Assembly: GCF_005222785.1 (NCBI RefSeq)
Contig: NZ_STGH01000001.1
Span: 1,426,001 to 1,490,000, forward strand
Source: Rhodobacter sp. SY28-1
Lineage (GTDB): Bacteria > Pseudomonadota > Alphaproteobacteria > Rhodobacterales > Rhodobacteraceae
Direction of reading: 5' to 3'
Length of the DNA: 64,000 nt
Made by a program: the position numbers and the translations under genes. Positions 8,813 through 24,908 of this stretch are shown here, piece by piece (position 1 is the first letter of the stretch; the number at the start of each line of letters is the position of its first letter). The notes below the pieces were generated by a model, which was not told the DNA's origin, ran no database searches, and worked only from the letters and a program-made list of their open reading frames with translations.

Positions 8813-10036
8813 TCACAGCGCGTCACGGATCAGGGGGCAGGTCATGCAGTGCGAGCCGCCGCGACCCCGGCCAAGCTCGGCACCCGAGATGGTGATGACC
8901 TCCACCCCCGCCTTGCGCAAAAGGGTGTTGGAGTGTTCGTTGCGCTCATAGCCGACGACCACGCCGGGAGAGATGCAGAGGAGATTGTTCGCATCATCCC
9001 ATTGTTCGCGCTGGGATTCGTAGGCGTCCCCACCTGTCGGCACGGTGCGCAGTTTCTTGAGGCCAAGGGCGCCGGCGACGACGTCCAGGAAGGGCGCGTT
9101 CTCTGCCGTCACGGTGACCTTGCCCCTGTCGCCGGGGCGCAGGGAGTAGGTCCGGATCGCGTCGGTCACCTCGGCGAAGACGGTCACCAGATCCCGGTCG
9201 CAGAAGGTGAAGACGGTGTCGAGGTGCATCGAAGACCGCGCGCGGGGGAACTGACAGGCGATGACCCGTTCCGCCCCGCCCCCGGCGAAGAGTGCCCGCG
9301 CGACTTGCCCAACGGCTTGCGGCGTGGTGCGTTCGCCCATGCCGATCAGGACAGTGCCGTGGCCGATGGGCATGACATCGCCGCCTTCCAGCGTGGCCAT
9401 ACCGTGATCGACCAGAGGGTCGCCGAACCAGATCGGGAACCCGGCCTCCGCGAAATCGGGATGAAAGCGGTAGACGGCCGTCAGGTTCAGGGTTTCCAAC
9501 CGTCGCGCGGGCCAGAACATCGGGTTCAGCGTGACCCCGCCATAGATCCAACAGGACGAGTCGCGGGTGAAGATCGTGTTCGGCATCGGCGGCAGCAGGA
9601 AGTCCTCATCCCGCAGCATCGGCACGACCACGCCCGCTTCCGGGATCGGCAGTTCGGCCCTGCTCATGCCCCCGATCAGGATGTGGGACAGCGCCTTGGC
9701 GGGCATCTCGGTCAGGCAGGCAAGAAGGTCCGCCGACAGCCCGACGCCGACCGAATTGTCGTTGATCCGCGCCGCCAGCAGCCACTGACGGGCTTCGGGG
9801 ATTGCCAGCACCTCCTCCAGCATCTCGCGCAGAAGGACGACCTCCACCCCCCGCTCGCGCAGGATGTCGACGAAGGCCATGTGGTCGATGCGGGCCTGCT
9901 TTACCCACAGGACATCGTCGAAGAGCAGGCTCTCGGCATTGGCTGGCGTCAGGCGGGCCATTTCCGACCCCGGGCGGTGGACAAGGACGCGGCGCAGGGT
10001 CCCGGCCTCGGAATGGACGCCATAGGTCAGGGTCAT
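8813..10036 (-). CDS. arcA: Arginine deiminase
   Basis: First enzyme of the ADI pathway: arginine gives citrulline + ammonia. The 407-residue product has the guanidino-group-modifying fold motifs [23 protein letters not shown], the catalytic His/Asp motif [11 protein letters not shown], and the C-terminal nucleophile Cys in [10 protein letters not shown] (about residue 397). Length and motif order are normal. ATG 10036 overlaps the yfcC stop by four bases (ATGA), which indicates coupling; the frame stays open further upstream inside yfcC, but [12 protein letters not shown] is the family start. Together with arcB and arcC it yields one ATP per arginine without respiration and raises local pH through ammonia. 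Confidence 0.97.
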
Positions 10037-11463
10037 GGCGTGGCTCCGAAGCTGACGGCCAGCGCCAGCGCGGCCATGATGACAAGGGTCAGGACCACGA
10101 GAAGCGGCCAGACAAAGCGCAGCCAGTGTTCGTAGGGGACCCGCCCGATGGCCAGCCCGCCCATGACCACGGCAGAGGTGGGGGTGATGAGGTTGACGAT
10201 CCCGCTGGCGGTGGCAAAGGCGGTGACGACAAGCTCGCGCTGCACCCCGGCGAAATCGGCGACCGGGGCAAGGATCGGCATCGACAGCACCGCAAGGCCC
10301 GAGGTCGAGGGGACGAAGAACGACAGCCCGACCTCGATCCAGTAGACGACAAGAAGAAAGCCGGTGGGCGGCAGGCCCGCGACCGAAACCTCGGCGCTGT
10401 GCAGGATCGTGTCGGTGATGAGACCTGCATCCATCACCACGACGATCCCGCGCGCCAGGCCGATGATGAGGGCGACCCCCAGAAGGTCCCGGGCGCCGTT
10501 CACGAAGGCCTCGACCAGCTTGGCTTCGCCGAGGTGCGCGACGATGCCGATGACGATGGCGGCTGCCAGGAACAGCCCGCTCATCTCGGCCATCCACCAG
10601 CCGCCCAGCGAAACGCCCCAAATCATCACGCCGAAGGTCAGCGCGAAAAGGATCAGGACGATCTGGTGCAGGCCGGTAAAGGTGGCGGGGCCAGCGGTGG
10701 TCTGGGTCCCGAAATGCGCCTCGTTCGCGGCCTTGCGATCATGGACCAGCGACTTCGACGGGTCGGCCTTCACCCTTGCGGCATAGCGCATGACGAAGGC
10801 CACGGTCACGACCCAGGTGACCGCAAGAATGGCCAGCCGCAGCATCAGCCCGTCGGCAAAGGTCACCCCGGCGGCGTCCGACGCGATGACGGTGGAAAAG
10901 GCGTTGATGGTCGAGCCGAGCACCCCCACACCTGCGCCCAGCAAGATCACGGCGACGGCGGTCAGGGCGTCATAGCCTGCGGCGATCATCACCGGGATCA
11001 GGAGGACATAGAAGGCCAGCGTTTCCTCGGCCATGCCATAGGTCGTGCCGCCCAGGGCAAACAGCGCCATGAGGAACGGGATCATCCAGGTCTCACGCCC
11101 CTTCAGGCGGACCATGGCGCGTGCGATGCCAGCGTCGATTGCCCCGGTGGCGGTGACCACACCGATGAACCCGCCGATGATCAGAACGAACAGCGACACG
11201 TCGATGGCGTTGGCGGCATAGCTGCCCGGGTCGTAGAAGCCCGCGATGGGGGCCAGGATGACGTCGAAGAGACCCTGCGGGTTGGCCTCGGTCGGCGCAT
11301 AGGTGCCAGCCACGGGCACGTCGCGGCCCAGGGCTTCAGAGGGGACACGAGTGTATTTCCCAGCCGGTATGATCCAGGTCAGGGCGGCGACAAGGACGAT
11401 CAGCGCAAAGAGGATGGTGAAGGCCGAGGGGAAGCGAAAGCCCGGCTTCGGGGTGGTGGGCAT
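10033..11463 (-). CDS. YfcC/DcuC-family transporter, probable arginine/ornithine carrier of the arc operon
   Basis: A 476-residue polytopic inner-membrane protein of the YfcC (PF03606-type) family with at least ten hydrophobic segments, starting [17 protein letters not shown]. The family is known for dicarboxylate and amino-acid related transport, and members often replace the classical ArcD antiporter beside arcABC. Position as first gene of the operon and the four-base overlap with arcA support arginine uptake or arginine/ornithine exchange; that substrate is inferred. Start ATG 11463 has AGGGAG eleven bases upstream; about 60 further in-frame upstream codons lack membrane character and were not used. 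An FNR-like box lies 61 bases upstream of the start. Confidence 0.85.
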
Positions 11464-11523
11464 GGCACGGCTCCCTGCGCTGACGCGATATCCTGAGCCT
11501 AGGCGCAAGCCCGCGGCGCCGGG

Positions 11524-11537
11524 TTGATGCAGGTTAG
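11524..11537 (-). promoter_or_regulatory. FNR-like box between arc operon and P-type ATPase
   Basis: Read on the minus strand the site is CTAAC-CTGC-ATCAA, an FNR/CRP-type two-arm layout with a 4-base centre. It lies 61 bases before the yfcC start and 48 bases before the ATPase start, so it could serve either divergent promoter. Six more sites with the same layout are found at 15129, 15178, 15761, 17628, 22453 and 23438. The binding protein is inferred; the Crp/Fnr gene at 15849 is the nearest candidate. Confidence 0.5.
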
Positions 11538-11584
11538 GATCGGTACCAGCGAGGGCGTGTGAGGCTCGCGCCTTGCAGTGAAAG

Positions 11585-14158
11585 GTGAATGACGTGACCA
11601 GATCCGCCAAAGGAGCGCCGCTTGCGAGGGTTTTGCCCAAAGGACTGACACGGGCCGAAGCGCAGTCCCGGCTTCAGGACGAGGGGTTCAACGAACTGCC
11701 GCGCACACGGCGGCGGTCGCCGCTGCGGATCATCCTCGACGTCCTGCGCGAACCGATGCTGGCACTGCTTCTGGCCGGTGGCGTGGTCTATCTGGCGCTG
11801 GGCAACCGGGAAGAGGCGCTTATCCTTCTGGCCTTCGCCTGCCTCTCGGTCGGCATCACCGTGGTGCAGGAAGCCCGGACGGAACGGGTGCTTGAGGCAC
11901 TGCGCGACCTGACCAGCCCGCGCGCCCTGGTGATCCGCGATGGCGAGCGGCAGCGCATCGCCGGGCGCGAGGTGGCGCGGGGCGATCTGATCGTGCTGGC
12001 CGAGGGCGACCGGGTTCCGGCGGATGCGCGGCTTTTGCAAGCCACGGGTCTTGCGGCGGACGAGTCCCTGCTGACGGGCGAGGCGGTTCCGGTGCGCAAG
12101 CTGGCGGGCAAGGCCGATCCAGGGGCAAGACCGGGGGGCGAGGATCAGCCTATGGTCTATTCCGGCAGCCTGATCGTGCGCGGCACGGCCCTGGCCGAGG
12201 TCACGGCCACCGGCCCGAGCAGCGAGATCGGGCGCATCGGCACGTCGCTTGGGCAGCTGGAAACCGAAACGCCGCACTTGCAGCGTCAAATGCGCAAGCT
12301 GGTGCTGGTCTTTGCTGGTGTGGGGGCCGTGGTGAGCCTGGCTGTGGTCGTGCTGTATGGCCTTTTGCGCGGCGGCTGGCTGGAGGGCGTGCTGGCGGGC
12401 ATCGCTGTCGGCATGGCGATGCTCCCGGAAGAGTTTCCTATGGTGCTGGCCGTCTTCATGGCAATGGGGGCCTGGCGGATATCGAAGGTGCGGGTGCTGA
12501 CGCGCCGTGCCGCGGCCATTGAGACCCTAGGCGCGGCCAGCGTCCTGTGCACCGACAAGACCGGCACATTGACGGAAAACCGCATGGTGGTCGCCCGGCT
12601 TTGCCTGCCAGAAGGCACCGAGACCCCAGTTGGCCCGGCCTTGCCCGAGGCCTTTCGCGAACTGGTGGCGGCGGGCACCATGGCCTCGGCCCCGGACCCC
12701 TTTGACCCGATGGAGAAGGCGTTCCATGCCCTGTCGGCAGCGGATCTGCGGGCAGGCGAGACCTTGCCGGGCGCGGGGCGCAAGCTGGTGCGAAGCTATC
12801 CGCTTGCGCCTGACCTCCTGGCAATGTCGCAGGTCTGGACGGCGACCGGCAGCGGTTGGCAGGTCGCGGCCAAGGGCGCGCCCGAGGCGATTGCCGATCT
12901 CTGCCGTTTGCCATCCCACACCCGCGCCGCTTTGACCTCGCAGGTGGACCGGATGGCCGGGGCGGGCCTCCGGGTGCTGGGCGTGGCCGAGGCGGGCTTT
13001 GCCGGAGCGACGCTGCCCGACAGCCAGCTGGGTTTCACCTTCCGCCTGGTGGGGCTTGTGGGCCTCGCCGATCCCTTGCGCGCCGCAGTGCCCGGGGCGG
13101 TGGCGCAGTGCCGAAGCGCGGGCATCCGGGTCATCATGATTACCGGTGATTACCCGACAACCGCGCAGGCCATTGCGGCCCAGGCCGGGCTTGCCGGTGA
13201 CAAGGTGATCGACGGCGCAAAGCTTGCGCAGATGTCGGACGCCGACCTTGCGGCTGCCGTCGCGGACACTACGATCTTCGCCCGCATCATGCCCGAACAG
13301 AAGCTGCGCATCGTGACCGCCCTGAAGGCAAGCGGCGCGGTGGTGGCGATGACAGGCGACGGGGTGAACGATGCGCCCTCGCTGAAGGCCGCGCATATCG
13401 GCGTGGCCATGGGCAAGCGTGGCACCGATGTCGCGCGTGAGGCCGCGTCCATCGTGCTGCTGGACGATGACTTCGGGTCCATCGTCACCACCGTGCGCCT
13501 TGGCCGCCGCATCTACGACAACCTGCGCAAGGCGATGAGCTTCATACTTGCTGTGCACGTCCCGATTGCCGGGCTGGCGCTTATGCCGTTGCTGTTCGGG
13601 ATGCCGCTGCTGTTCGGCCCGGTCCACATCGCTTTTCTGGAAATGGTCATCGACCCGGTCTGCAGCCTGGTCTTCGAGGCCGAGGAAGAGGAAGACGGCG
13701 TCATGGACCGCCCGCCGCGCCCGCCGGGCGAGCCGCTTTTTTCCGGCCCGACCATCCTGTGGAGCCTTGTGCAAGGCGCGCTGGTTCTTGGCGTGACCGG
13801 CGCGGTCTTCGTGCTGGCACCCGGCTACGGTCTGTCGACCGATCAGGCCCGCGGGCTGACCTTCGCGACGCTGGTTCTGGGGGTGGTGGCGCTGATCCTT
13901 GTGGATCGGTCGCTTTCCGCGTCGATCGTGACGGCGATCCGGCGGCCGAACCGGGCCTTGGCCGTGGTGCTGCCCGTCGTAGCGGTTCTGCTGGCCGTCA
14001 GCCTTTTCTGGCAACCGGCGCGAGACCTTTTCGACTTTTCCGCGCTGCCGTCGGCCTGGTTGGCCGTCCCGCCCCTGGCAGGCGCCGGAATATTGGTCGT
14101 GCTGGAGGTTCTGAAGCCCCTCTGGCGCCGCGCTGTGCGGCAGGTGCCGTCGCCCTGA
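11585..14158 (+). CDS. P-type cation-transporting ATPase (P2-like, ion unknown)
   Basis: An 857-residue membrane pump that uses ATP to move a cation. Order: N-terminal cation_ATPase_N helix region, M1-M2, actuator domain with TGEAVPVRK, M3-M4 with PEEFPMVLA, phosphorylation loop with DKTGTLTENRM (phosphorylated Asp324), hinge MTGDGVNDAPSLKAA, then the C-terminal helices. Architecture resembles Ca2+/Mg2+-type P2 ATPases, but the ion-site helices read PEEFP instead of PEGLP and M6 reads IDPVCSLVFEAE, so the substrate should not be assumed. The frame opens with GTG 11585; GTG 11594 has a better spaced AAAGG and may be the real start. It is divergent from the arc operon across an FNR-like box. 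Confidence 0.92.
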   Translation: MNDVTRSAKGAPLARVLPKGLTRAEAQSRLQDEGFNELPRTRRRSPLRIILDVLREPMLALLLAGGVVYLALGNREEALILLAFACLSVGITVVQEARTERVLEALRDLTSPRALVIRDGERQRIAGREVARGDLIVLAEGDRVPADARLLQATGLAADESLLTGEAVPVRKLAGKADPGARPGGEDQPMVYSGSLIVRGTALAEVTATGPSSEIGRIGTSLGQLETETPHLQRQMRKLVLVFAGVGAVVSLAVVVLYGLLRGGWLEGVLAGIAVGMAMLPEEFPMVLAVFMAMGAWRISKVRVLTRRAAAIETLGAASVLCTDKTGTLTENRMVVARLCLPEGTETPVGPALPEAFRELVAAGTMASAPDPFDPMEKAFHALSAADLRAGETLPGAGRKLVRSYPLAPDLLAMSQVWTATGSGWQVAAKGAPEAIADLCRLPSHTRAALTSQVDRMAGAGLRVLGVAEAGFAGATLPDSQLGFTFRLVGLVGLADPLRAAVPGAVAQCRSAGIRVIMITGDYPTTAQAIAAQAGLAGDKVIDGAKLAQMSDADLAAAVADTTIFARIMPEQKLRIVTALKASGAVVAMTGDGVNDAPSLKAAHIGVAMGKRGTDVAREAASIVLLDDDFGSIVTTVRLGRRIYDNLRKAMSFILAVHVPIAGLALMPLLFGMPLLFGPVHIAFLEMVIDPVCSLVFEAEEEEDGVMDRPPRPPGEPLFSGPTILWSLVQGALVLGVTGAVFVLAPGYGLSTDQARGLTFATLVLGVVALILVDRSLSASIVTAIRRPNRALAVVLPVVAVLLAVSLFWQPARDLFDFSALPSAWLAVPPLAGAGILVVLEVLKPLWRRAVRQVPSP

Positions 14159-14169
14159 CCACTGACATT

Positions 14170-14200
14170 GGAACGGGGCGGATTTCCCCCGCCCCGTTCC
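14170..14200. terminator. Hairpin between convergent genes, possible bidirectional terminator
   Basis: GGAACGGGGCGG (14170-14181) and its exact complement CCGCCCCGTTCC (14189-14200) form a 12-bp stem with a 7-base loop. It sits between the 3' ends of the P-type ATPase and the DUF481 gene. No long T-run follows on either strand, so intrinsic termination is likely but not certain. Confidence 0.6.
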
Positions 14201-14218
14201 GGTGCTGGGTGATCGCTG

Positions 14219-15052
14219 TCAGAAGGAATAGACCAGCGAGACGCCCAGTTTGTTCTCGGTCCTGACGGCGCGCGAGTCGTTGTACTCGGTCAGGTAGCTG
14301 ACACGGGTGGCGAACATGTCGGACATCTTGACGTTGAACCCAAGGTCGTTGTTCACGCGCAGCGCGCTGTCGGACTTCAGCACGTCGGTGTCGTTGGTGG
14401 CAAAGAGGCTTTCGTTCAGCCGCCAGAACAGCCGCGACGAGGCGATGTAGCCGGTCTCGGTCTCGGAGGTGCCCGCGCCGTCCTTCAGGTAGCTGACCCC
14501 GATTCCCGCCTGGACCCGCCAGCTGAGGTCGGGCGTGTTGATGACGCGGTAGCCCGGCCCCACGCCGATGAAGGCGTCGGTCTTGACGGTGTCTGCCGTC
14601 TCGGCCAGGCCGTCGGTCTTCACCCGGCCAAGGGCGAAGGCATAGAAGGCATCGTCGAAGTAGTAGTTCGCGTCATAGATCGCGAAGAGGTCTTCCTTGG
14701 TCTTCACGGACCCGGATTCGGCGAAGTCCAGCACCAGGCCAAGGGTCTGGATCATCGGGCCATTGGCCAGGCGCAACCGCGCGCCCAGGCTGAATTCGCT
14801 GGAATCCGTGACCCCGGTCTTGCCGGAATAGCCAAGCGAGGCACTGCCCGACAGGCCCTCGCGGTACTCGGGCGACCCGTAGCGGAAGGCGTCGTTGCCG
14901 CGGTCGAGGTCAAGCCGGGCCTCCCGGTCGATGTCATCGATCCGGTCGTCGACCGAGTCGATGCCGGTCAGGACGGTCTGGGCGACCCCGCCCGTTGCAC
15001 CAAGGGCGATGAAGGCGACGGTCGTTCCCGCCACGAGAGCAGCGTGTGTCAT
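14219..15052 (-). CDS. DUF481-family outer membrane protein
   Basis: A 277-residue protein with an N-terminal signal peptide (hydrophobic to about residue 23, ending GGVAQ) followed by alternating amphipathic strands and a C-terminal aromatic (LVYSF), the signature of an outer membrane beta-barrel. GLSGSASLGYSGKTG and repeated strands fit DUF481 (YdiY, 'salt-induced outer membrane protein'). Members are exported barrels of unclear function, often linked to salt or acid stress. ATG 15052 is the only sensible start before the signal peptide. A box reading CTGCC-CTGG-ATCAG lies at 15129-15142, 77 bases upstream. Confidence 0.85.
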   Translation of the reverse strand: MTHAALVAGTTVAFIALGATGGVAQTVLTGIDSVDDRIDDIDREARLDLDRGNDAFRYGSPEYREGLSGSASLGYSGKTGVTDSSEFSLGARLRLANGPMIQTLGLVLDFAESGSVKTKEDLFAIYDANYYFDDAFYAFALGRVKTDGLAETADTVKTDAFIGVGPGYRVINTPDLSWRVQAGIGVSYLKDGAGTSETETGYIASSRLFWRLNESLFATNDTDVLKSDSALRVNNDLGFNVKMSDMFATRVSYLTEYNDSRAVRTENKLGVSLVYSF

Positions 15053-15128
15053 GCGATTTGCCTTTTGGATGAGGTAACGCCCTGAATGAACGCCTGACCC
15101 TGAATGCCACAGGCGGCCGGAGGCAAAG

Positions 15129-15142
15129 CTGCCCTGGATCAG
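15129..15142 (+). promoter_or_regulatory. FNR-like box upstream of the DUF481 gene
   Basis: The sequence CTGCC-CTGG-ATCAG matches the local box except for one C in the left arm. It is the nearer of two such boxes in the divergent DUF481/DUF3309 intergenic region. Confidence 0.35.
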
Positions 15143-15177
15143 TATCCCTGCCGCTTTGCCGTCAGGTCATCGCAGGA

Positions 15178-15191
15178 CTGTCGCAGGTTAG
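15178..15191 (-). promoter_or_regulatory. FNR-like box upstream of the DUF3309 gene
   Basis: On the minus strand it reads CTAAC-CTGC-GACAG. The first nine bases are identical to the box before the arc operon. It ends 66 bases before the DUF3309 start. Confidence 0.4.
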
Positions 15192-15257
15192 TGCCGTTGC
15201 AGAGGGGTTCGGCATGATCGGCAGCCGAAGTCCTGACCCTGGAAGAAAGTCCGTCCC

Positions 15258-15413
15258 ATGCTGACCAACATGCTTGTCGTCATCCTGATCCTGCTGCTGA
15301 TCGGTGCCCTGCCGACCTGGCGGCACAGCGCGTCATGGGGCTATCTGCCCAGCGGCACGCTTGGCGTGATCGTCATCATCCTGGTCGTGCTTTTGCTGAC
15401 GGGTCGCCTGTAG
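15258..15413 (+). CDS. DUF3309 small membrane protein
   Basis: A 51-residue protein with two hydrophobic helices around a conserved polar linker: VVILILLLIGALPTW, then HSASWGYLPSG, then GVIVIILVVLLLTGRL. This is the typical DUF3309 pattern, a family of tiny inner-membrane proteins of unknown function common in Proteobacteria. ATG 15258 is preceded by GGAAGAAAG. An FNR-like box lies 66 bases upstream. It is probably monocistronic, since the next gene is convergent. Confidence 0.85.
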   Translation: MLTNMLVVILILLLIGALPTWRHSASWGYLPSGTLGVIVIILVVLLLTGRL

Positions 15414-15427
15414 ACCGTCACACCGCC

Positions 15428-15661
15428 CTATCTGCGGCGGACCGAGTTCCCGCCGTCGATGATCTTGGTGATGAGCGCCGCGACGGCCGCATGCATCGCC
15501 GGGTTCCCGCCATCGGGGGCCGGTGCATGTGCGCTTGCCGCGTCGCGCAGGATGCCGACGATTTCCCGCTCGGGCAGGACATTGCGGTCGTTCAACGCCA
15601 GGAGAAGCGACTCGCAGATGGTCAGTGCGGCAATTCCGGCCACATCGGAGATATCGGCCAT
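15428..15661 (-). CDS. Conserved small protein, function unknown
   Basis: A 77-residue soluble protein with predicted helices (VAGIAALTICESLLLALND, then LPEREIVGILRDAASA). It has no signal peptide or metal motif. Coding is supported by composition and by its place divergent from the Crp/Fnr gene, with an FNR-like palindrome between them. Similar 70-90 residue proteins are frequent beside stress genes in Rhodobacterales; I do not recognise a named family. It ends 14 bases from the DUF3309 stop. Confidence 0.7.
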   Translation of the reverse strand: MADISDVAGIAALTICESLLLALNDRNVLPEREIVGILRDAASAHAPAPDGGNPAMHAAVAALITKIIDGGNSVRRR

Positions 15662-15760
15662 GGGATTTCGACTTTCTGGAAGGGTTCTGCTATACTACCG
15701 CACACAAGCTCGCGCGATGTCATGACTTGCGCGATCCTGGCAGGATATCCGGCAGCCGGA

Positions 15761-15774
15761 CTGATCTGGATCAG
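15761..15774. promoter_or_regulatory. FNR-type palindrome CTGATCTGGATCAG
   Basis: A perfect two-arm palindrome CTGAT-CTGG-ATCAG, very close to the FNR/FixK consensus TTGAT-N4-ATCAA. It lies between divergent genes, 74 bases before the Crp/Fnr start at 15849, and so is a good candidate for autoregulation or control by another FNR-family protein. Confidence 0.65.
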
Positions 15775-15848
15775 CAATCGGACGCATCTTTTGCGGAACA
15801 AGGACCTTGGGGCGGCCAGATCACCCGCCGATCCCCGTGAGGTGAACA

Positions 15849-16601
15849 ATGCCGGAGACCGCCAGTCTGTCTGCCATCCAGGACAGCCCTTTCGCGCGGA
15901 AGCTTGCAGCCTTCGTAAAGCTGTCGGACCTGGACCTGACAGCCATGTCGGACCTTTACCGCCGCCGCCGCCGCTTTGCGGTTGGCGTCGACATGATCCA
16001 CCAGGGCCAGACCAACCAAAGCGCCTATGTCGTGGCTTCCGGCTGGGCCTGTTCCTACAAGATCCTGCCAGGCGGGTCGCGGCAGATCGTGGACATCCAG
16101 ATCCCGGGTGACTTCCTTGGCCTTCGGTCGGTGCTGTTCCGGACCGCCGACCACAATGTCGAGCCGATCACCCTGGTCCAGGCCTCCGAGGTCAAGCAGC
16201 GCGATCTTCTGAACACCTTCTCGCAGACGCCGCGGCTGGCCACGGCGGTCCTGTGGGCCGCATCCCGCGACGAGGCGATGGTGGTCGAGCATCTGGTCGA
16301 TATCGGACGCAGGTCCGCGACAGAACGGATGGCGCATTTCCTGCTGGAGCTTGGCGCGCGGCTGCGGCTGGTCGGTCTGGGGACCCGGGCGGGGTACCTC
16401 TGTCCGATGTCGCAGTACCTGTTGGCCGATGCCCTGGGCCTCAGCGCCGTGCACGTGAACCGCGTCCTGCGGGAACTGCGCGAGGAAGGCATGCTCACCT
16501 TCCAGAAGGGACGGGTCGTGTTCGACGACTACGACGCCCTGGTCGAGATGGCAGGGTTCGACCGCACATACCTGGACCAGGACAGACCGCTTCTGCTGTA
16601 G
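15849..16601 (+). CDS. Crp/Fnr-family transcriptional regulator
   Basis: A 250-residue regulator with an N-terminal cyclic-nucleotide-binding-like beta-roll (about 30-140), a long dimerisation helix, and a C-terminal winged helix (about 170-235) with recognition region LADALGLSAVHVNRVLREL. It lacks the N-terminal Cys cluster of true FNR, so direct Fe-S oxygen sensing is not supported. The recognition helix has AVHVNR where CRP has RETVGR and FNR has the E..SR pattern, so target specificity may differ. ATG 15849 has GAGG six bases upstream. An FNR-type palindrome precedes it, and similar boxes sit before neighbouring operons, which makes it the likely local regulator. Confidence 0.92.
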   Translation: MPETASLSAIQDSPFARKLAAFVKLSDLDLTAMSDLYRRRRRFAVGVDMIHQGQTNQSAYVVASGWACSYKILPGGSRQIVDIQIPGDFLGLRSVLFRTADHNVEPITLVQASEVKQRDLLNTFSQTPRLATAVLWAASRDEAMVVEHLVDIGRRSATERMAHFLLELGARLRLVGLGTRAGYLCPMSQYLLADALGLSAVHVNRVLRELREEGMLTFQKGRVVFDDYDALVEMAGFDRTYLDQDRPLLL

Positions 16602-16897
16602 GCCATTGGGTGTGCTTCCGAGGCTTGATGACAAGCCCCGGAAGGAACGACTGGTCTGTTCCAGGACTCCAGTCGCGGCTTCCAGCAACGTCAGGTCGGG
16701 CCAATCCCGCCGATACTGACTGAGGGTTGCGCGAAGCCGGTTTTCTGCGGTGACAGGTCCGATGCAGGGAAAATCAGCCGATTGCGGGTCGAGGCGCGGG
16801 GTTCGGGCAAGGCTGCCATTCCCGAGACGCCGACCGGAAAGCAACCGCCCGCCGGGATGCGGCAGGCGGCATTTCGGATTCCGGAAGGTTGCGAACG

Positions 16898-17533
16898 TCA
16901 ATTCGTCGGGGTGATGATGATCTCGACCCGCCGGTTCATCGCACGCCCGGCCGCCGAGGAGTTCGAAGCGATCGGATCGGCATAGCCGCGGCCCGAATAG
17001 GTGATCCGGTTGGATGCAACACCGTAGCGGACCAGGATCTGCGCCACGGCCTGTGCCCGCTCGCGGCTGAGCGTCCGGTTGTAGTCCGCCCCGCCGACGT
17101 TGTCGGTGTGGCCGACCACGCGGATGGTCGAGTACGGGTGTTCGCGCAAGGACCGCGCAATGTCACGCAAGGCAGGCAGGAAGCCTGGGTCCACGACGGC
17201 AGAGCCGGTCGCGAAGGTCACGCCCTCGGGCAGGATGACGTACAACTGGCTGCCGGTGTTGGTGATGCTGGCGCCGGTTCCGGCAAGCCGCTGGTTCAGC
17301 TCGCGCTCTTGCCGGGCCATGTTTTCGCCGATGGCACCGCCGATCACGGCTCCGGCCACGCCGCCGATGATGGCCGAGCGGTCATCGCCGCCGACAGCCT
17401 TGCCGACGACCGCGCCGGTCACGCCACCGATCAGCGCCCCGGTGGCGGGCTTGTTGGATGTGCCGTCGCTGTAGACACAGGCAGAAAGTGCCAGTGTCGC
17501 GGCGAGGAGGATTGGGCCTGAGGTGCGGGTCAT
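16898..17533 (-). CDS. OmpA-family lipoprotein with glycine-zipper (YiaD-like)
   Basis: A 211-residue lipoprotein. Residues 1-17 form a lipoprotein signal ending in lipobox LSAC. A glycine-zipper stretch follows (GALIGGVTGAVVGKAVGG, then GGVAGAVIGGAIGENMA), then an OmpA C-terminal peptidoglycan-binding domain (VVGHTDNVGGADYN, LSRERAQAVAQIL, NRRVEI). It should anchor the outer membrane to peptidoglycan. ATG 17533 was chosen because it begins the signal peptide and has AAGGA nine bases upstream; the open frame upstream lacks these. An FNR-like box lies at 17628-17641, 95 bases before the start. The roughly 295 bases between its stop and the Crp/Fnr stop hold nothing I can identify. Confidence 0.92.
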   Translation of the reverse strand: MTRTSGPILLAATLALSACVYSDGTSNKPATGALIGGVTGAVVGKAVGGDDRSAIIGGVAGAVIGGAIGENMARQERELNQRLAGTGASITNTGSQLYVILPEGVTFATGSAVVDPGFLPALRDIARSLREHPYSTIRVVGHTDNVGGADYNRTLSRERAQAVAQILVRYGVASNRITYSGRGYADPIASNSSAAGRAMNRRVEIIITPTN

Positions 17534-17627
17534 GATGTGTTCCTTCGGTGGCAAGGCCTGGCGAGAGGGTCGCGGGGCCATAGGGTTCAGTCCTGTGCAA
17601 CGATGGCGCAAATCCGCCGAGACCGCC

Positions 17628-17641
17628 CTAATCTGCATCAG
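17628..17641 (+). promoter_or_regulatory. FNR-like box between OmpA lipoprotein and cupin genes
   Basis: CTAAT-CTGC-ATCAG, identical at 12 of 14 positions to the box before the arc operon. A weaker relative, CTAAC-CTCA-GGCAG, is at 17683-17696, 56 bases before the cupin start. Both lie in the divergent intergenic region. Confidence 0.45.
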
Positions 17642-17751
17642 CAGGCTGACAGATTGACCGTCCGGCTGAAATCGCCCCGCCGCTAACCTCAGGCAGGATC
17701 GGGCCTGGTTGCCTCTGTCACAGTGATGGCAGTCGAACCCGGAGAACGCAG

Positions 17752-18204
17752 ATGCATGGCTATGTCGGACCGATCGAGGCCTTGACCGAAGGCAACCGTG
17801 ACTTTCGCCGGGTGCTGTTCACGGCCACCCACCTGCAGCTTGTCCTGATGGCGCTGAAACCCGGTGAAGAGATCGGCTCCGAGGTCCATGCGACGCATGA
17901 CCAATTCTTCCGGATCGAAAAGGGTCGTGGCGAGATCGTGCTGGACGGGCAGCGCAGCCATGTGCAGGCGGGCGATGCCATCCTTGTTCCGGCGGGCGCG
18001 CGGCACAACCTTGTCAACACCGGCAAGCGGCGCCTGCGGCTTTACACGCTTTACGCCCCGCCCCAGCATGCCGACCGCCTCGTCGAGCCGACAAAGGCCG
18101 AGGCCGACCAGCACGAGAGGGATCGCAAGCAGACCGGCGCGGCCGAACAGGGCCGGAAGGACATGATCGACGAAGGGTCTCCGGTCGCGGGGCCTGTCCG
18201 ATGA
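17752..18204 (+). CDS. Cupin-domain protein
   Basis: A 150-residue single-domain cupin. The cupin motif 1 region reads GSEVHATHDQFFRIEKGRGE and motif 2 reads GDAILVPAGARHNLVN, giving His/Glu/His metal ligands in the usual places. Known members are small metal-dependent isomerases, dioxygenases or sensors, so the reaction cannot be assigned. The C-terminal 40 residues are charged and probably disordered. It overlaps the next gene by four bases (ATGA), indicating a two-gene operon. Confidence 0.85.
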   Translation: MHGYVGPIEALTEGNRDFRRVLFTATHLQLVLMALKPGEEIGSEVHATHDQFFRIEKGRGEIVLDGQRSHVQAGDAILVPAGARHNLVNTGKRRLRLYTLYAPPQHADRLVEPTKAEADQHERDRKQTGAAEQGRKDMIDEGSPVAGPVR

Positions 18205-19001
18205 CCCTTCCCGGCGCCGTCCGTGACCTTGCCTTGCGGCTTGGCGCAAGTCCGGCACGCATCGCGGGGCCGGTGCATCTGACCCAGACAGGCAGCATGA
18301 AGCTGCGGCTGGACACCGACGGCTGGCTGCCTTTCCGCGCCAGCCAGACCCTTGAGGTCACGCGTTGTGCCTTTTCCTGGCGCGCCCGCTTCTGGCCCTT
18401 GGGCTATCTCACAGTGCTCGACGCTCTGGTCGATGGCGAAGGCCGGATGGATGTGACTGCCTTCGGGGTCTTTCCACTGGTCCGGTCCAGATCCTCGGCC
18501 GCTTTGACCAAGGGCGAGCTGCAGCGCTATCTTGCCGAACTTCCCTATGCCCCCGATGCCATCCTGCACAATCCGGCGCTGGAGTGGCGCGAGATCGACC
18601 GGAACCGGCTTGCGGTTGCCACCGGCAGTGGCGCACAGCGGGCCGAGGTGATCTTCACGCTGGACCCCGACGGGCACATCGGCAGCGTCTGGGCCGAGGA
18701 CCGCCCCCGTTCGGCTACCTCGCCGACCCTGCCGACACCTTGGGAAGGCCAGTTCTCGGACTACCGTCTGTGCCAGGGCCGTTCCGTGCCCTATTCCGCC
18801 GAGGTTGCCTGGATGATCGACGGCAAGCGCAATCTGTACTGGCGCGGCAGCCTGACCGACTGGATGCTGGTGCCGCCGGTATCATCGGTCACGTCCACAC
18901 GGCCCAGGCGTCCTTCCGAAACCCTGCGCGACCGGCCCCCCGCCGTGGGGACAGCTTCCCCGCGCATCACGGTGACTGAAAACCATACTCGCATTGGCTG
19001 A
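18201..19001 (+). CDS. DUF6544-family protein
   Basis: A 266-residue protein with the DUF6544 (formerly DUF6920) pattern: HLTQTGSMKL near the start, FSWRARF, then FGVFPLVRS, LQRYLAELPYAPDAIL and LEWREID. The family is widespread and of unknown function; the fold resembles lipid- or polymer-binding shells. There is no signal peptide. Translation is coupled to the upstream cupin through an ATGA overlap. The last 40 residues (rich in Arg, Pro, Ser) look atypical for the family and may be a degenerate tail. Confidence 0.75.
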   Translation: MTLPGAVRDLALRLGASPARIAGPVHLTQTGSMKLRLDTDGWLPFRASQTLEVTRCAFSWRARFWPLGYLTVLDALVDGEGRMDVTAFGVFPLVRSRSSAALTKGELQRYLAELPYAPDAILHNPALEWREIDRNRLAVATGSGAQRAEVIFTLDPDGHIGSVWAEDRPRSATSPTLPTPWEGQFSDYRLCQGRSVPYSAEVAWMIDGKRNLYWRGSLTDWMLVPPVSSVTSTRPRRPSETLRDRPPAVGTASPRITVTENHTRIG

Positions 19002-19134
19002 AATCCCCTTGCCGATGTGGGAAGCCCGCCCGTCCGGTGCAAGCCGGGCGGGCGGTGTGAAACCGGGGCCCGTCGGGTTCGGACGTCCGGCGCTGACGGG
19101 TCATGCGCAATCGAACCGAACTATGGAGGCAAGA

Positions 19135-19389
19135 ATGGACATCCGCTCAACCCGCACGACGCTGACCTTTCGCAAACCGTTCACCCTTCCGCTTTCAGAC
19201 AGGACGATGCCTCCGGGCGACTATGTCCTTCTGACCGAAGAAGAGCGCCTGGAGGGGCTGACCTTCAATGCCTACCGGCGCGTTGCCAGGTACCTGATTG
19301 TCAGCGGCGGGCCAGAGTTTCCCGGTCGGACCGAGATGATCCCGGTCAACGATGCCGAAATGGCTGAACTTGTCGCCTGCGACATGTAG
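19135..19389 (+). CDS. Small conserved protein, 84 residues
   Basis: Start ATG 19135 has GGAGG five bases upstream, which overrules a longer in-frame extension back to 18994. The product begins MDIRSTRTTLTFRKPFTLP and continues with a compact beta-rich sequence (LPPGDY-like PPGDYVLLTEEER, LEGLTFNAYRRVARYLIV). It has no signal peptide or Cys/His cluster. I recognise similar small proteins in Rhizobiales and Rhodobacterales but no named function. Confidence 0.7.
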   Translation: MDIRSTRTTLTFRKPFTLPLSDRTMPPGDYVLLTEEERLEGLTFNAYRRVARYLIVSGGPEFPGRTEMIPVNDAEMAELVACDM

Positions 19390-19456
19390 CCCGTCGCGTT
19401 TGTCCGGGAACTGCCCCACTTGGCCGGGCCGTCGACCACATGACGGTCTGTGTCGA

Positions 19457-20127
<671 letters not shown>

Positions 20128-20131
<4 letters not shown>

Positions 20132-21333
20132 TGCCCGATCGCCGTGACCGGATCCACCCGCGCCGCTGCCCGGGCAGGCAGGATCGAGGCGAGGATCGCC
20201 CCGATCACCGTCAGCGTGATGGCCAGCCCATAGGAGCCTTGGGTGATGTCCATCGGCAAGGTGCCCGACCGGAAAGCATCGCGAGTGGGAAAGGGCAGCA
20301 GCGCCAGATAGCCCAGCACTGCGCCGGAGAGCCCGCCCAGGACCCCGATCAGCGCGCCTTGGGTGACGAAGACCCCGACAACAAACAGCCGCGAGGCGCC
20401 CATCGCCCGCATGATCCCGATTTCCGGCCTGCGGCGGTAGGTGGACAGGAGAAGCGCCGAGGCGACGCCGATGATGATCGTAATCATCGCGAAGGTCTTC
20501 AGGAAGTACCCGGTCTGCGCCTGCGCCTTCAGCGCCTCAAGGAGTTGCGCGCCATCCTCGGTCCAGGATGTCGCGGGCAGGCCGGTCAGCCCTTCGACGC
20601 GCAGGGTGACCGCATCAGCGGCGTAAAGGTCGAAAAGCTTGATCTCGATCCGGCTCAGGCCCTGGGGCATGGCGAAGAGCGTACGCGCGGTGGGCAGGCT
20701 GACATAGGCCATCCGCCGGTCCGGCCCACCGCCCGTGCCGATCTGGTAGATGCCGGTCAGCGTCAGTGCCACCTCGACCCCGTCGGCCGATTGCAGGACG
20801 ACCGTCTGGCCAAGGGCCAGCCCCATGTCATCCACCAGCGTCCGGCCCAGAAGCACCGCACCCGACCGCAGGCGGGCATCGCCCTCGACCATGTAGCTGT
20901 CCAGATTCAGGATCGCCGATTCCCGCCCCGCCTCCAGCCCGGTCACCGTCACCTGCGCAACCTTCGTGCCCCGCCGCAGGAAGCCCGCGCCGGTGATCTG
21001 GGGCGAGACGGCCCTGACCTCGGGCAGCGCCTCGATTAGGGGGATGAAGCCTGCCGCCTCGCGCAGGTCGGCGGTTTCAGAGGCGGTTTCCTGTGCCAGC
21101 AGCACCTCTCCGGGCAGGGCAAGAAGAAGGACCGGGTCGATCTCTTCGGCCTCGATGGTGACGTGGGAAATATCTCCGGCGGTGCGCGACAGGATGAACT
21201 CAGCCAGCCCGCCGATCAGGGCGGACATGAAGATGAAGATGAAGACGCCGACCGCCACGCCCAGCACCAGAAGTGCGGTCTGCGCCTTGGAGGCGGTCAG
21301 GTAGCGGCTGGCGATCTTCAGCGCGTAAAGCAT
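20128..21333 (-). CDS. ABC transporter permease, MacB/FtsX family
   Basis: A 401-residue permease with one N-terminal membrane helix (AQTALLVLGVAVGVFIFIF), a large periplasmic domain of about 220 residues, and three C-terminal helices (for example MITIIIGVASALLL), the FtsX/MacB layout. With the ATPase and fusion protein it should form a tripartite exporter driven from the periplasm; the substrate (lipid, peptide or drug) is unknown. ATG 21333 was chosen because MLYALKIASRYLTA is the family start and it overlaps the upstream stop by one base (TGATG). No TolC-like channel is nearby. Confidence 0.9.
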
Positions 21334-22418
21334 CAGGGTTCGCCCGCATCCACGGCCAGCCCGTCGCTCAGCCCGGTGCTGTCGGTGATGACCCGGTCGC
21401 CCGGTGCCAGCCCTTCGGTCACGATCAGCCGGGCGGCGGGCCAATCGGTCACCATGACGGGCCGCAGCACGGCCCTGTTGCCGACCAGAAGAAACACCGC
21501 ATCCCCCTGCAAGGCGGTGCGCGGGACGGTCAGCGCCGTCTCGCGCCCCACGACGATGTTCGCCGTCACCGTCAGGCCAATCGGCGCGCGCAGCGGGTCG
21601 GCCAGACCAAGCTTGACCGCCAGCCCCCCGGTCGCCGGGTCCACCCGGGGGGAAACGAAGATCACCGTCCCCTCCAATATCCCGCGACCGCCGACAAGAC
21701 GCACTGCCGCCTCCTGCCCGACCGCGATGCGCGTTGCATAGGCCTCGTCCACATCGGTCTCGATCAGAAGTTCGGTCATGTCGGCCAGGGTGAAGAGGGC
21801 GGTCGCGGGATCCACCAGTTGTCCAGGGTCCACCGACCGCACGGTGATGGTGCCCGCAATCGGCGCGCGCAGGGTGAACCGGCCCAGCTGGATCGTCGCT
21901 TGATCGAGAAGGGCGGTCAGCCGTGCAACGTCCTGTGCCGCCCCGTCCAACGCCAGCCGGGAATCCTCGAGCCGGGACCGAGGCACAAGGTTGCCCAGTT
22001 CCTGATTGCGCAGATAGGCCAGTTCGGCCTGTTGTTGCAGAACCTGCCCCTGACCCAGGGCCGAGGCGGCCTGCCGCACGATCGCCTCTTGCTGGCTGGG
22101 GTCCAGCCGGGCCAGGACATCGCCGGGCTGCACGACAAGGCCTTCGACGGCCAGCACCTCAAGCAGGGTGGCCGAGACGGCCGACCGGATTTGAACCTGA
22201 TCGCGCGGGGCCACCTTGCCGCTGACGGCAAGGACCAGGGTGACCGGGCCGGGGGCCATCACCTCGAACGTTACCGCAGGTCCGTTTGCCCGCCAGGGGC
22301 CGAACCACCAGCCTGCAGCCACAAACGCCCCAACCGCGAGCAAGACAAGACTACGCAAAAGGCGCTTTCCTCCCTTGCGAACACCGGGGGTGGGCTTGGG
22401 TTCGGCGACAGCGGTCAT
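21333..22418 (-). CDS. Periplasmic adaptor (HlyD/MacA-like membrane fusion protein)
   Basis: A 361-residue adaptor: N-terminal membrane anchor (LLRSLVLLAVGAFVAAGWW, about 20-40), split lipoyl domain (GKVAPRDQVQI and APIAGTITVRSVDPGQLV), an alpha-helical hairpin rich in Gln/Ala/Leu, then beta-barrel and membrane-proximal domains. This is the MacA/RND-type fusion protein architecture. ATG 22418 directly precedes the anchor; a much longer upstream open frame has no homologous look. It is the first gene of the exporter operon. An FNR-like box (22453-22466) lies 34 bases upstream. Confidence 0.9.
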   Translation of the reverse strand: MTAVAEPKPTPGVRKGGKRLLRSLVLLAVGAFVAAGWWFGPWRANGPAVTFEVMAPGPVTLVLAVSGKVAPRDQVQIRSAVSATLLEVLAVEGLVVQPGDVLARLDPSQQEAIVRQAASALGQGQVLQQQAELAYLRNQELGNLVPRSRLEDSRLALDGAAQDVARLTALLDQATIQLGRFTLRAPIAGTITVRSVDPGQLVDPATALFTLADMTELLIETDVDEAYATRIAVGQEAAVRLVGGRGILEGTVIFVSPRVDPATGGLAVKLGLADPLRAPIGLTVTANIVVGRETALTVPRTALQGDAVFLLVGNRAVLRPVMVTDWPAARLIVTEGLAPGDRVITDSTGLSDGLAVDAGEP

Positions 22419-22452
22419 TCCGCAGTCATACCTGGGCTGGCCCGCGCAAAAG

Positions 22453-22466
22453 CTGATCTGCGGCAG
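22453..22466 (+). promoter_or_regulatory. FNR-like box between exporter operon and csbD-like gene
   Basis: CTGAT-CTGC-GGCAG, in the divergent region 34 bases before the adaptor start and 131 bases before the CsbD start. It shares the CTGC centre with the other local boxes. Confidence 0.4.
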
Positions 22467-22597
22467 TCCGTCGTGCAGTTCCCGCCCCATTCTGGCCAAG
22501 ACTGATCCATGTAAGTGTGACCGTGCACGCAAAAGGTAGCCTTGCAGCAGGCCCAGATCGTTCTCGGCCACACTGACCTTCGAGAAGGAGAGACGCG

Positions 22598-22795
22598 ATG
22601 AACTGGGATCAGGTTGAAGGCAAATGGAAGCAGGTCCAGGGCAAGGTGCTCGAAAAGTGGGGCAAGCTGACGAATGACGATCTGGATCAGATCGCCGGCA
22701 AGCGTGATCAGCTGATCGGCAAGGTCCAGGAGAAGTACGGGCTGGCAAAGGAAGCGGCAGAGCGCGAAGTCGATGACTGGACGCGCGGCTCCTGA
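22598..22795 (+). CDS. CsbD-family stress protein
   Basis: A 65-residue highly charged helical protein with the classical CsbD pattern: NWDQVEGKWKQVQGKVLEKW, then KLTNDDLDQIAGKRDQLIGK. Members are abundant small proteins induced by general stress; their biochemical role is unknown. ATG 22598 has AAGGAGA ten bases upstream. Confidence 0.93.
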   Translation: MNWDQVEGKWKQVQGKVLEKWGKLTNDDLDQIAGKRDQLIGKVQEKYGLAKEAAEREVDDWTRGS

Positions 22796-22957
22796 TCGCA
22801 GTGGCAGGTCCGCTTGCGGCCCGAACACCTTTGCGCTTGCGCGCTTGTCCTTCTGGCTGCGGGCTGTCGCGACAGACGGACACGCAAGCGTGGACTCAAA
22901 TTAAGTAGGCGCGGCCGGTAACCGGCTGCCGTTCTGTAAGGATGGAAGGGAAGACAC

Positions 22958-23032
22958 ATGAACAATCTGATCTGGCTTGTCGGTGCAGTTGTCATCATCG
23001 TTTTCGTGCTGGGCTACTTTGGATTGCGGTAG
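22958..23032 (+). CDS. 24-residue single-helix membrane peptide
   Basis: The product is MNNLIWLVGAVVIIV followed by FVLGYFGLR: one transmembrane helix with a positively charged C terminus. It is preceded by GGATGGAAGGGAAG, giving a strong AAGGG ribosome binding site seven bases before ATG. Very similar peptides occur in other Rhodobacteraceae as conserved hypothetical genes. It is too short for routine gene callers. Role unknown; it sits with CsbD and other stress genes. Confidence 0.65.
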   Translation: MNNLIWLVGAVVIIVFVLGYFGLR

Positions 23033-23168
23033 TCGCCCGGCCGGTGCGGGATCCTCACCTGGATCTTTTCAGCTGACGAGGCTGCACTGGCGGGCACTTG
23101 ATGCCCGATCCTTCGATCCTGCCCGCAGCAAGCAACAGGAAGCGGACCTCGTGCGCACGACGCGCGAC

Positions 23169-23441
23169 ATGCGGTTCCGGAGTGCGCGGTCAGGCTGCGT
23201 GTCGGTCCGTTCGCCCCGGGTGACGAGCCGGTTTGCCTTTCTCGAATTGGCCAGACCGCCGCTTGAGGCCCCGACCGAAGAACCGCCGTCTTCGCCCATG
23301 GAAATGCCGCCAGGAGGGTCCGAAGTGCCTGAATCGACGGTGCCCGAAATCCCTGATACGGTCCCCGACGGGCTGCCCGAGGTACCGCCGCCTGAAATGC
23401 TGATAGAGGAAGGCAGCAGACGGAAGCCTTCGCAACATTGA
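23169..23441 (+). CDS. Possible small Pro/Glu-rich protein
   Basis: An open frame whose C-terminal half is built of Pro-Glu-Val-Pro units (PPLEAPTEEPPSSPMEMPP, then VPEIPDTVPDGLPEVPPPEM). Such short PEVP-rich proteins occur in Rhodobacterales beside stress genes. The start is unsure: ATG 23169, or ATG 23298 for a shorter form; neither has a strong ribosome binding site. The region upstream to 23033 shows no other gene. Confidence 0.35.
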   Translation: MRFRSARSGCVSVRSPRVTSRFAFLELARPPLEAPTEEPPSSPMEMPPGGSEVPESTVPEIPDTVPDGLPEVPPPEMLIEEGSRRKPSQH

Positions 23442-23451
23442 TGCAGCATAA
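23438..23451 (-). promoter_or_regulatory. FNR-like box upstream of AI-2E family transporter
   Basis: On the minus strand TTATG-CTGC-ATCAA, eleven of fourteen bases identical to the arc-operon box. It lies 53 bases before the start at 23505 and touches the end of the preceding small frame. Confidence 0.35.
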
Positions 23452-24563: not shown

Positions 24564-24908
24564 CAGGGAGCAGTATGCCAGTTGGGCAACGTGCTGGCCG
24601 CTACAAGTATGGCAATCTACTAGAGCTAGCTCCGCGTTTCGTTACCATGTTGTCTTTCTTTCCGCTCAACAGCTGGCGCTGGCACATTTTATTAGTGCCA
24701 GCTATGGGCCGAGAGCTTCCGGGGGGAAGGTGAGGACGGGAATTCCTATGTTCGCTGCGGCCATGGTTCGCACTTGTAGCGCTGATGTCAGCACACAGCT
24801 AACCCCTCCTACCTGTGGCTTTTTTCTTCGAAATGTCCTGCGCGAAAATTGACTTCCAACGCGGGGTTTCGCCCCGGTAGCTCAGCTTTATGCCTACCCC
24901 CTCGGGGG

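What the first reader, a model, noticed from the sequence alone, without database searches (positions are those of the whole stretch)
11524..23451. A local family of FNR-like boxes with a conserved CTGC centre
Seven 14-base sites with pattern CTRAY-CTGS-RNCAR lie only in promoter regions of one 12-kb block: before yfcC-arcABC/ATPase (11524), DUF481 (15129), DUF3309 (15178), the Crp/Fnr gene (15761), OmpA lipoprotein (17628), exporter/CsbD (22453) and the AI-2E transporter (23438). In ordinary FNR boxes the four centre bases vary; here five of seven read CTGC and the other two CTGG. The embedded Crp/Fnr protein lacks the FNR cysteines and has an unusual recognition helix (AVHVNR), so a new target specificity and a local regulon are plausible.
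Basis: partly seen in the sequence, partly recalled or inferred. Interest (0 to 1): 0.8.

Follow-up and report, generated by a model that had tools for sequence, protein, structure and literature searches.

The report
Stress regulator with its own boxes
A little-studied relative of the oxygen regulator FNR, nearly always found with a small protein of unknown function, appears to switch on a cluster of neighbouring stress and energy genes through its own version of the FNR DNA box.

Summary
Five of seven sites match the pattern exactly (0.09 expected). Orthologues of the embedded Crp/Fnr gene carry a palindrome CTGAT-N4-ATCAG upstream in 73 of 79 loci. When sites are chosen without looking at the end bases, 57 of 63 have C...G ends and none the T...A of an FNR box. 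The CTGC/CTGG centre is only a preference (37 of 73 self sites, 46 of 94 others). A matrix trained on the orthologues' own promoters finds intergenic sites around the regulator (0.47 per kb), rarely elsewhere in carriers (0.05 per kb). A -10 hexamer follows at a fixed distance, placing the box near -41.5, the class II activator position. All 38 carriers among 198 family genomes also have the divergent 77-78-aa gene; 2 of 160 non-carriers do, both at broken loci. Predicted targets: YfcC-arginine deiminase, cation pumps, CsbD, OmpA, an exporter. Site 15178 is weak and 23438 unsupported. There is no genome-wide enrichment. Binding, signal and expression are untested. Prior work predicted non-FNR sites for uncharacterised Crp/Fnr groups (PMC2908626).

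The parts
15849..16601 (+). Crp/Fnr-type regulator, 250 aa, recognition helix AVHVNR, no FNR cysteine set (only C68 and C185)
   Evidence: Pfam HTH_Crp_2 and cNMP_binding; conservation in 81 sequences; model Z 21.9 to FNR 9qly, rmsd 2.7, 226 aligned
15428..15661 (-). divergent 77-aa partner gene, three predicted helices, no Pfam match
   Evidence: next to the regulator in 68 of 81 loci, window included; intergenic box of 11 bits or more before it in 64 of 68; in 38 of 38 carriers and 2 of 160 non-carriers; model pLDDT 79.9
15761..15774 (.). box CTGATCTGGATCAG between the regulator and its partner
   Evidence: 22.5 bits; conserved in 73 of 79 orthologue loci
15734..15739 (-). possible -10 (CAGGAT, weak) for the 77-aa gene
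   Evidence: offset 35 from the box, 2.3 bits; the same offset peaks in 64 aligned partner-gene promoters
11524..11537 (-). box CTAACCTGCATCAA before yfcC-arcABC
   Evidence: exact match; 11.1 bits
11496..11501 (-). -10-like TAGGCT at offset 36 toward yfcC
   Evidence: 4.5 bits; class II spacing
10033..11463 (-). YfcC-type transporter (DcuC family)
   Evidence: intergenic box upstream in 14 of 16 loci
8813..10036 (-). arginine deiminase arcA, downstream of yfcC
   Evidence: TIGR01078 above its cut-off
7781..8785 (-). ornithine carbamoyltransferase arcB
   Evidence: TIGR00658 above its cut-off
6853..7779 (-). carbamate kinase arcC
   Evidence: TIGR00746 above its cut-off
11585..14158 (+). cation P-type ATPase
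   Evidence: intergenic box upstream in 3 of 5 loci, but no -10 at the right offset on this side in the window
15129..15142 (+). box CTGCCCTGGATCAG between DUF481 and DUF3309
   Evidence: 15.7 bits, no good -10 at offset 36 on either side
15178..15191 (-). weak box CTAACCTGCGACAG
14219..15052 (-). DUF481 protein
15258..15413 (+). DUF3309 small protein
   Evidence: intergenic box upstream in 4 of 7 loci
17628..17641 (+). box CTAATCTGCATCAG between OmpA lipoprotein and cupin genes
   Evidence: 18.6 bits; CATCGT (2.2 bits) at offset 36 toward OmpA
16898..17533 (-). YiaD-family OmpA-like lipoprotein
   Evidence: NF053611 above its cut-off; box in 5 of 5 loci
17752..18204 (+). cupin protein
   Evidence: box in 5 of 7 loci
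22453..22466 (+). box CTGATCTGCGGCAG between exporter and CsbD
   Evidence: 14.7 bits; TATGAC at offset 36 toward the exporter
   Evidence: 13.6 bits, TAGCCT at offset 35 (22537-22542) toward CsbD
22598..22795 (+). CsbD-like protein
   Evidence: PF05532 73.5 bits, cut-off 40; box in 4 of 9 loci
21333..22418 (-). periplasmic adaptor (HlyD type) of an exporter; permease and ATPase follow at 20128-21333 and 19457-20131
   Evidence: TIGR01730 above its cut-off, HlyD_3; box in 6 of 9 loci

Best explanation
The protein at 15849-16601 is a Crp/Fnr-type dimeric activator of a subfamily that lacks the FNR iron-sulphur cysteines. It reads a 14-bp palindrome CTGAY-N4-RTCAG, i.e. the FNR box with C:G instead of T:A as the outer pair and a loose preference for CTG in the centre. 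It sits about 41.5 bp upstream of the start point (class II position). From there it activates its own divergent 77-aa partner gene, probably itself, and a set of mostly neighbouring stress and energy genes: YfcC with the arginine deiminase operon, cation P-type ATPases, an ATP-synthase-type ATPase in some relatives, OmpA lipoproteins, CsbD, DUF3309 and an exporter. Shown by computation: site conservation, end-base difference, local enrichment, -10 spacing, and co-inheritance with the partner gene. Inferred: that this protein is what binds, that binding activates, and that the swaps E to V and S to N in the recognition helix cause the change of end base. The signal is unknown. The invariant C185 next to the helix-turn-helix and the partner protein are the candidates I would test first.
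For: 73 of 79 orthologue loci have the box 46-128 bp upstream of the start of the match to the regulator; 59 permuted half-sites reach a median of 5 loci and a maximum of 34. 30 of 30 loci (29 relatives and the own genome) score 11 bits or more (some are the same species as in the first set). Chosen without the end bases, 57 of 63 sites have C...G ends, 0 of 63 T...A; background 12 and 4 of 182. Matrix hits of 12 bits or more: 114 in 240.8 kb of intergenic DNA near the regulator, 3 in 56 kb of intergenic DNA elsewhere in carriers; 16 bits or more: 44 against 0. A -10 hexamer peaks at offset 36 for 122 intergenic non-self promoter segments (z 6.5; 27% reach 4 bits, average 1.3%), at 35 for 64 partner-gene promoters (z 4.4) and at 36 for 71 regulator promoters (z 3.4) (which corrects). 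Partner gene in 38 of 38 carriers and 2 of 160 non-carriers. One of the two has only a regulator fragment beside transposase-like genes and still has the box; the other is a decayed frame with neither regulator nor box. Helix residues at FNR E209/S212/R213 (PMC4505428, passage) are V/N/R here (alignment).
Against: No binding or expression data. CTGATN4ATCAG is not commoner in carrier genomes (5.5 per genome, n=38) than in others (5.71, n=160). The box plus -10 pattern is barely commoner (49 hits in 38 carriers, 1.29 each; 161 in 160 others, 1.01 each). So enrichment is shown only near the regulator. Of 9 testable regulator-bearing genomes with yfcC, 5 have a box of 11 bits or more before it and 4 do not. 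Of 14 without the regulator, 2 do: G132 with CTGATCTGTATCAA, and G166, whose site is the FNR type. The control half-site CGATT reached 34 of 79 and is unexplained. In the window the -10 elements are modest, and 15129 has none at the right offset. Thirteen of 81 loci lack the partner gene next to the regulator; two of these start at a contig end and one has a diverged copy. The loci are related by descent, so counts are not independent events.
Confidence: 0.8

Rival explanations
1. The boxes are variant sites of FnrL or another FNR/FixK/DNR-type regulator in the same cell, and the neighbouring Crp/Fnr gene is itself only a target.
For: The box differs from TTGAT-N4-ATCAA by one base pair per half; the genome also has 6 perfect FNR-type boxes; some target sites have one T:A end (17 of 94); PMC2908626 prints one FnrL site as CTGATctgcGTCAA (passage).
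Against: None of 63 end-blind sites upstream of orthologues has T...A ends. The regulator is in only 38 of 198 family genomes, the partner gene tracks it, and the box is conserved there. The regulator's helix differs from FNR at two of the three contact residues.
Confidence: 0.1
2. The regulator binds these boxes but mainly represses, or only autoregulates; the neighbouring sites act by other means.
For: Crp/Fnr proteins can repress, and autoregulation of either sign would conserve the box (general knowledge). Several window promoters have weak -10 elements at the class II offset.
Against: The -10 hexamer peaks at the class II offset in 122 intergenic non-self segments. A repressor would not need that spacing.
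Confidence: 0.12
3. One reading: the fixed CTGC/CTGG centre defines the site family and its specificity.
For: All seven listed sites have it; 37 of 73 self sites and 46 of 94 other sites of relatives have CTGS or its complement, against 2.4% of intergenic 4-mers.
Against: Half of the conserved sites have other centres (for example CGAC, CGAA, ACAG, GGAC). FnrL sites printed in PMC2908626 also have such centres.
Confidence: 0.08
4. Chance similarity in GC-rich DNA.
For: The pattern was chosen after seeing the sites; CTGAT-N4-ATCAG occurs about 5 to 6 times in a family genome on average.
Against: Conservation at orthologous promoters, local enrichment and -10 spacing.
Confidence: 0.01

Closest known systems
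FnrL / FNR (TTGAT-N4-ATCAA, oxygen-responsive)
   Same: Crp/Fnr fold (Z 21.9, rmsd 2.7, 226 aligned, to A. fischeri FNR), 14-bp palindrome with a TGA core, class II spacing
   Different: no four-cysteine cluster set, helix V/N/R in place of E/S/R, outer pair C:G, local stress and energy targets; FnrL model 63.9 bits against a cut-off of 300
FixK / FixK2 and R. sphaeroides CrpK (Crp/Fnr proteins without the FNR cysteines)
   Same: lack of the full set of iron-sulphur cysteines; FixK2 structure is a hit (4i2o)
   Different: FixK is predicted to read the same site as FNR (PMC2908626, section read); CrpK is predicted to share FnrL targets (PMC4344238, passages). NCBIfam FixK model 61.9 bits against 300. 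Whether CrpK is an orthologue was not tested
Uncharacterised alphaproteobacterial Crp/Fnr groups A, B, C, G of Dufour et al. 2010 (nomenclature of Korner et al.)
   Same: these groups were predicted from upstream DNA to bind related but non-identical sites (PMC2908626, one section and passages read); the present subfamily may well belong to one
   Different: cannot be compared: the logos (figure) and the locus table (supplement) were not available to me
CRP class II activation
   Same: box centred near -41.5 (the reference position is recalled)
   Different: CRP model 20 bits against 266; half-site and targets differ

Membership tests
Crp/Fnr superfamily | cNMP-binding-type sensor domain plus Crp helix-turn-helix | tested here: met
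   PF00027 42.1 and PF13545 56.2 bits, both above cut-off; fold match
FNR/FnrL | four cysteines for the [4Fe-4S] cluster | tested here: not met
   only C68 and C185 in the window protein; C185 81/81, C68 71/81
FNR/FnrL | E209-S212-R213 in the recognition helix | tested here: not met
   aligned residues V, N, R; N204 and R205 invariant in 81
FNR/FnrL | recognises TTGAT-N4-ATCAA | tested here: not met
   0 of 63 end-blind sites upstream of orthologues have T...A ends; inferred from DNA, no binding assay
FNR/FnrL | curated equivalog model | tested here: not met
   NF045989 63.9 bits, cut-off 300
FixK | curated equivalog model (Caulobacter type) | tested here: not met
   NF050806 61.9 bits, cut-off 300
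CRP | curated equivalog model | tested here: not met
   NF008732 20 bits, cut-off 266
CRP | cAMP binding | not tested
   no ligand assay; contact residues not compared systematically
Crp/Fnr groups A, B, C, G, NnrR (Dufour 2010) | membership list and HTH/DNA logos | not testable with these tools
   logos are a figure and the list is a supplement
Class II activator promoters | box centred at about -41.5 | tested here: met
   -10 hexamer at offset 36 in 122 intergenic segments, z 6.5; start points themselves not mapped

The most novel reading that the evidence does not exclude
The regulator and its divergent 77-78-aa helical protein are an obligate two-part signalling system. The small protein acts as sensor, co-activator or anti-activator of the Crp/Fnr protein, and the pair reads its own DNA code (CTGAT). 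By giving neighbouring genes this box, the module has taken over operons such as yfcC-arc that are under FNR-type boxes in several relatives lacking it.
Probability: 0.3. Interest if true: 0.7.

Novelty: new variant of a known kind. Interest (0 to 1): 0.55.

Why it matters
PMC2908626 lists four Crp/Fnr groups of alphaproteobacteria as uncharacterised. Here one subfamily without the FNR cysteines gets a box, a promoter geometry, a target list and a co-inherited partner protein. All of these are directly testable in cultured, harmless Rhodobacteraceae. It also gives a natural pair (TTGAT and CTGAT) for working out how the recognition helix sets the outer base.

Tried and rejected
Centre CTGC as the defining feature: rejected as a rule, kept as a bias. 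Genome-wide co-occurrence of the box with the regulator: no clear signal. First look at orthologue promoters: loci from the genome search are not turned to the match strand, so minus-strand loci seemed empty; one search had the same fault; both redone. In one search the row of G021 is not usable for yfcC (partial gene at a contig end) and is left out of the counts. One search counted sites in coding DNA too and gave ornithine carbamoyltransferase 8 of 16; those sites lie in the end of the arginine deiminase gene and are an artefact of protein conservation. One search repeats the counts and the -10 analysis with intergenic sites only, and the report uses those. Paralogues with related helices (then 30 loci): the own-genome paralogue (AVHTSR) and its congener have TTAAC-N4-GTTAA upstream (2 of 30); the other 28 show no common palindrome, so no recognition code could be drawn. 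Fold of the 77-aa protein: best Z 5.4 (6ylg, rmsd 4.4, 73 aligned) among 12 chains, which for a helical protein says little. A general link to tRNA genes: 6 of 48 relatives' loci hold any tRNA (48 of the 80 named loci were given). Literature: the listings (titles and starts of abstracts) name no paper on this box or regulator, and one search found no paper with the helix letters VHVNR. The library holds open-licence papers only, the longer lists were cut at 8 to 15 papers, and the figures of PMC2908626 were not seen, so prior description of the logo cannot be excluded.
Full report
What was checked. The window lies in a 4.28-Mb genome (contig 1, 1426001-1490000), of Rhodobacteraceae type to judge by the nearest named orthologues. 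15129 has one mismatch; 23438 reads TTATGCTGCATCAA and has two. Because the pattern was fitted to the sites, I tested it with data that did not include them.

Footprint at orthologues. A genome search kept the best 80 of 471 relatives, 66-85% identical, mostly titled Rhodobacteraceae or genera I place there, with some Rhizobiales-type and other records. In 73 of the 79 with enough upstream DNA, a site at 8 or more of 10 positions of CTGAT-N4-ATCAG lies 46-128 bp upstream of the match start. Fifty-nine permuted half-sites reached a median of 5 loci, the best (CGATT) 34, which I cannot explain. In the unnamed family genomes 30 of 30 loci, the own genome included, score 11 bits or more (some are the same species as in the first set). 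Choosing sites by the inner eight positions only, 57 of 63 have C...G ends and none T...A, against 12 and 4 of 182 in background DNA. So the outer base pair, not the centre, separates this box from the FNR box. The CTGS centre is a preference: 37 of 73 self sites and 46 of 94 others, background 2.4%.

Other targets. A matrix from the self sites was scanned over 81 stretches with genes called by a codon-usage script. Around the regulator (80 loci, self sites left out) hits of 12 bits or more number 114 in 240.8 kb of intergenic DNA (0.474 per kb) and 83 in 1171 kb of coding DNA (0.071 per kb). In 20 stretches of 20 kb elsewhere in 16 carrier genomes they number 3 in 56 kb (0.054) and 16 in 344 kb (0.047). 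Fifty-six of 80 loci have at least one non-self intergenic site of 13 bits or more. Gene families with an intergenic box of 11 bits or more upstream, as loci with box of loci with gene, window included: partner 64 of 68, yfcC 14 of 16, exporter adaptor 6 of 9, OmpA lipoprotein 5 of 5, cupin 5 of 7, CsbD 4 of 9, DUF3309 4 of 7, two P-type ATPase groups 3 of 5 and 3 of 3, an ATP-synthase-beta-type protein 2 of 2, and two small families without a Pfam name, 8 of 10 and 7 of 8 (domain names). In the own genome 12 of 20 strict matches are intergenic. Trans sites include one before a sigma factor gene with a PhyR-type sigma2 domain (L283:1867-2412, box CTGATGCAGATCAG) and one before a potassium transporter gene (L161).

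Promoter geometry. Aligning segments on the box shows a -10 hexamer at a fixed offset: 36 bases from the first base of the box for 122 intergenic non-self segments (z 6.5; 27% reach 4 bits against 1.3% on average), 35 for 64 partner-gene promoters, 36 for 71 regulator promoters (a first run that included coding sites gave the same offsets). With the last -10 base at -7 (recalled convention) the box centre falls at -41.5, the class II activator position. In the window the clearest cases are TAGGCT for yfcC-arc at 11496-11501 and TAGCCT for CsbD at 22537-22542, the latter one base closer to its box.

The protein and its partner. The regulator has both Crp/Fnr domains, matches FNR structures best (Z 21.9, rmsd 2.7, 226 aligned), has only two cysteines, and scores far under the FnrL, FixK and CRP equivalog cut-offs. 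At the FNR contact residues E209, S212, R213 (PMC4505428, passage) it has V, N, R; C185, N204 and R205 are invariant in 81 sequences. The divergent 77-aa gene is next to the regulator in 68 of 81 loci; of the 13 others two begin at a contig end and one has a diverged copy. At genome level it is in 38 of 38 carriers and 2 of 160 non-carriers among 198 family genomes (Fisher p 1e-38, not corrected for relatedness). Of the two exceptions, G031 holds a 93-aa regulator fragment beside transposase-like genes (named by eye) and still has the box; G125 has a decayed frame, no regulator and no box. The model of the 77-aa protein is three helices with no convincing fold match.

Results against. The box is not enriched genome-wide in carriers (5.5 against 5.71 per genome), and the box plus -10 pattern is barely so (1.29 per genome in 38 carriers, 1.01 in 160 others). 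For yfcC, 5 of 9 testable regulator-bearing genomes have a box of 11 bits or more and 4 do not. Of 14 others, 2 do: G132, a real counterexample, and G166, which is the FNR type. Several genomes without the regulator have TTGAT-type boxes before yfcC (G166, G171, G134), but so does one carrier (G140).

Prior knowledge. PMC2908626 (one section and passages read) divides alphaproteobacterial Crp/Fnr proteins into eight groups, four of them uncharacterised, and predicts from upstream DNA that the groups other than FNR, FixK and DNR bind related but non-identical sites. The present subfamily may belong to one of these; I could not see the logos. So a non-FNR box for such a protein is not new in principle. 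The box for this subfamily, the target list, the promoter spacing and the partner gene did not appear in the listings of the searches made.

Verdict. A real, mainly local regulon of a Crp/Fnr subfamily with its own half-site: a new variant of a known kind. Signal, binding and function of the partner remain open.

Noticed in passing
window 14162-16600 and L131:11375-13813 (contig 1, about 1419374-1421812): A 2439-bp segment (DUF481, DUF3309, 77-aa gene, regulator) is present twice at 99.96% identity, 20.8 kb apart; the two regulator copies differ at residue 246 (R in the window, G in the other; G in 79 of 81 sequences).
   Followed up: partly
window 25630-25704 and L131:8753-8827: Two tRNA-Glu genes in the same orientation, within an identical 78-bp repeat, bound about 35 kb that holds both regulator copies and most targets; integrase-like broken frames by eye at 24894-25624, without Pfam match. 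Possible old genomic island. tRNA genes are not general at relatives' loci (6 of 48).
   Followed up: partly
L131:14121-14185 (contig 1, 1422120-1422184): Two more boxes (CTGATCTGCGTCAG, CTAACCTCGATCAG) next to the second regulator copy, before a 64-aa gene; similar small proteins of relatives have the box in 5 of 16 loci (similarity judged by eye).
   Followed up: partly
L242, L243 (paralogous Crp/Fnr gene, helix VHTSR): TTAAC-N4-GTTAA palindrome about 120 bp upstream in the own genome and its congener; not in 28 other relatives, whose helix reads VHTNK wherever the output shows it.
   Followed up: partly
upstream regions of orthologues L051-L130: The control half-site CGATT-N4-AATCG reaches 34 of 79 loci, far above other permutations; possibly a second conserved element or an overlap.
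   Followed up: no
loci among L051-L130 (e.g. L117): Gene families that look like an ATP-synthase-type operon occur in 9 loci near the regulator, and arc-yfcC genes in 16 of 81, as if different energy operons were recruited (names partly by eye, one subunit confirmed).
   Followed up: no
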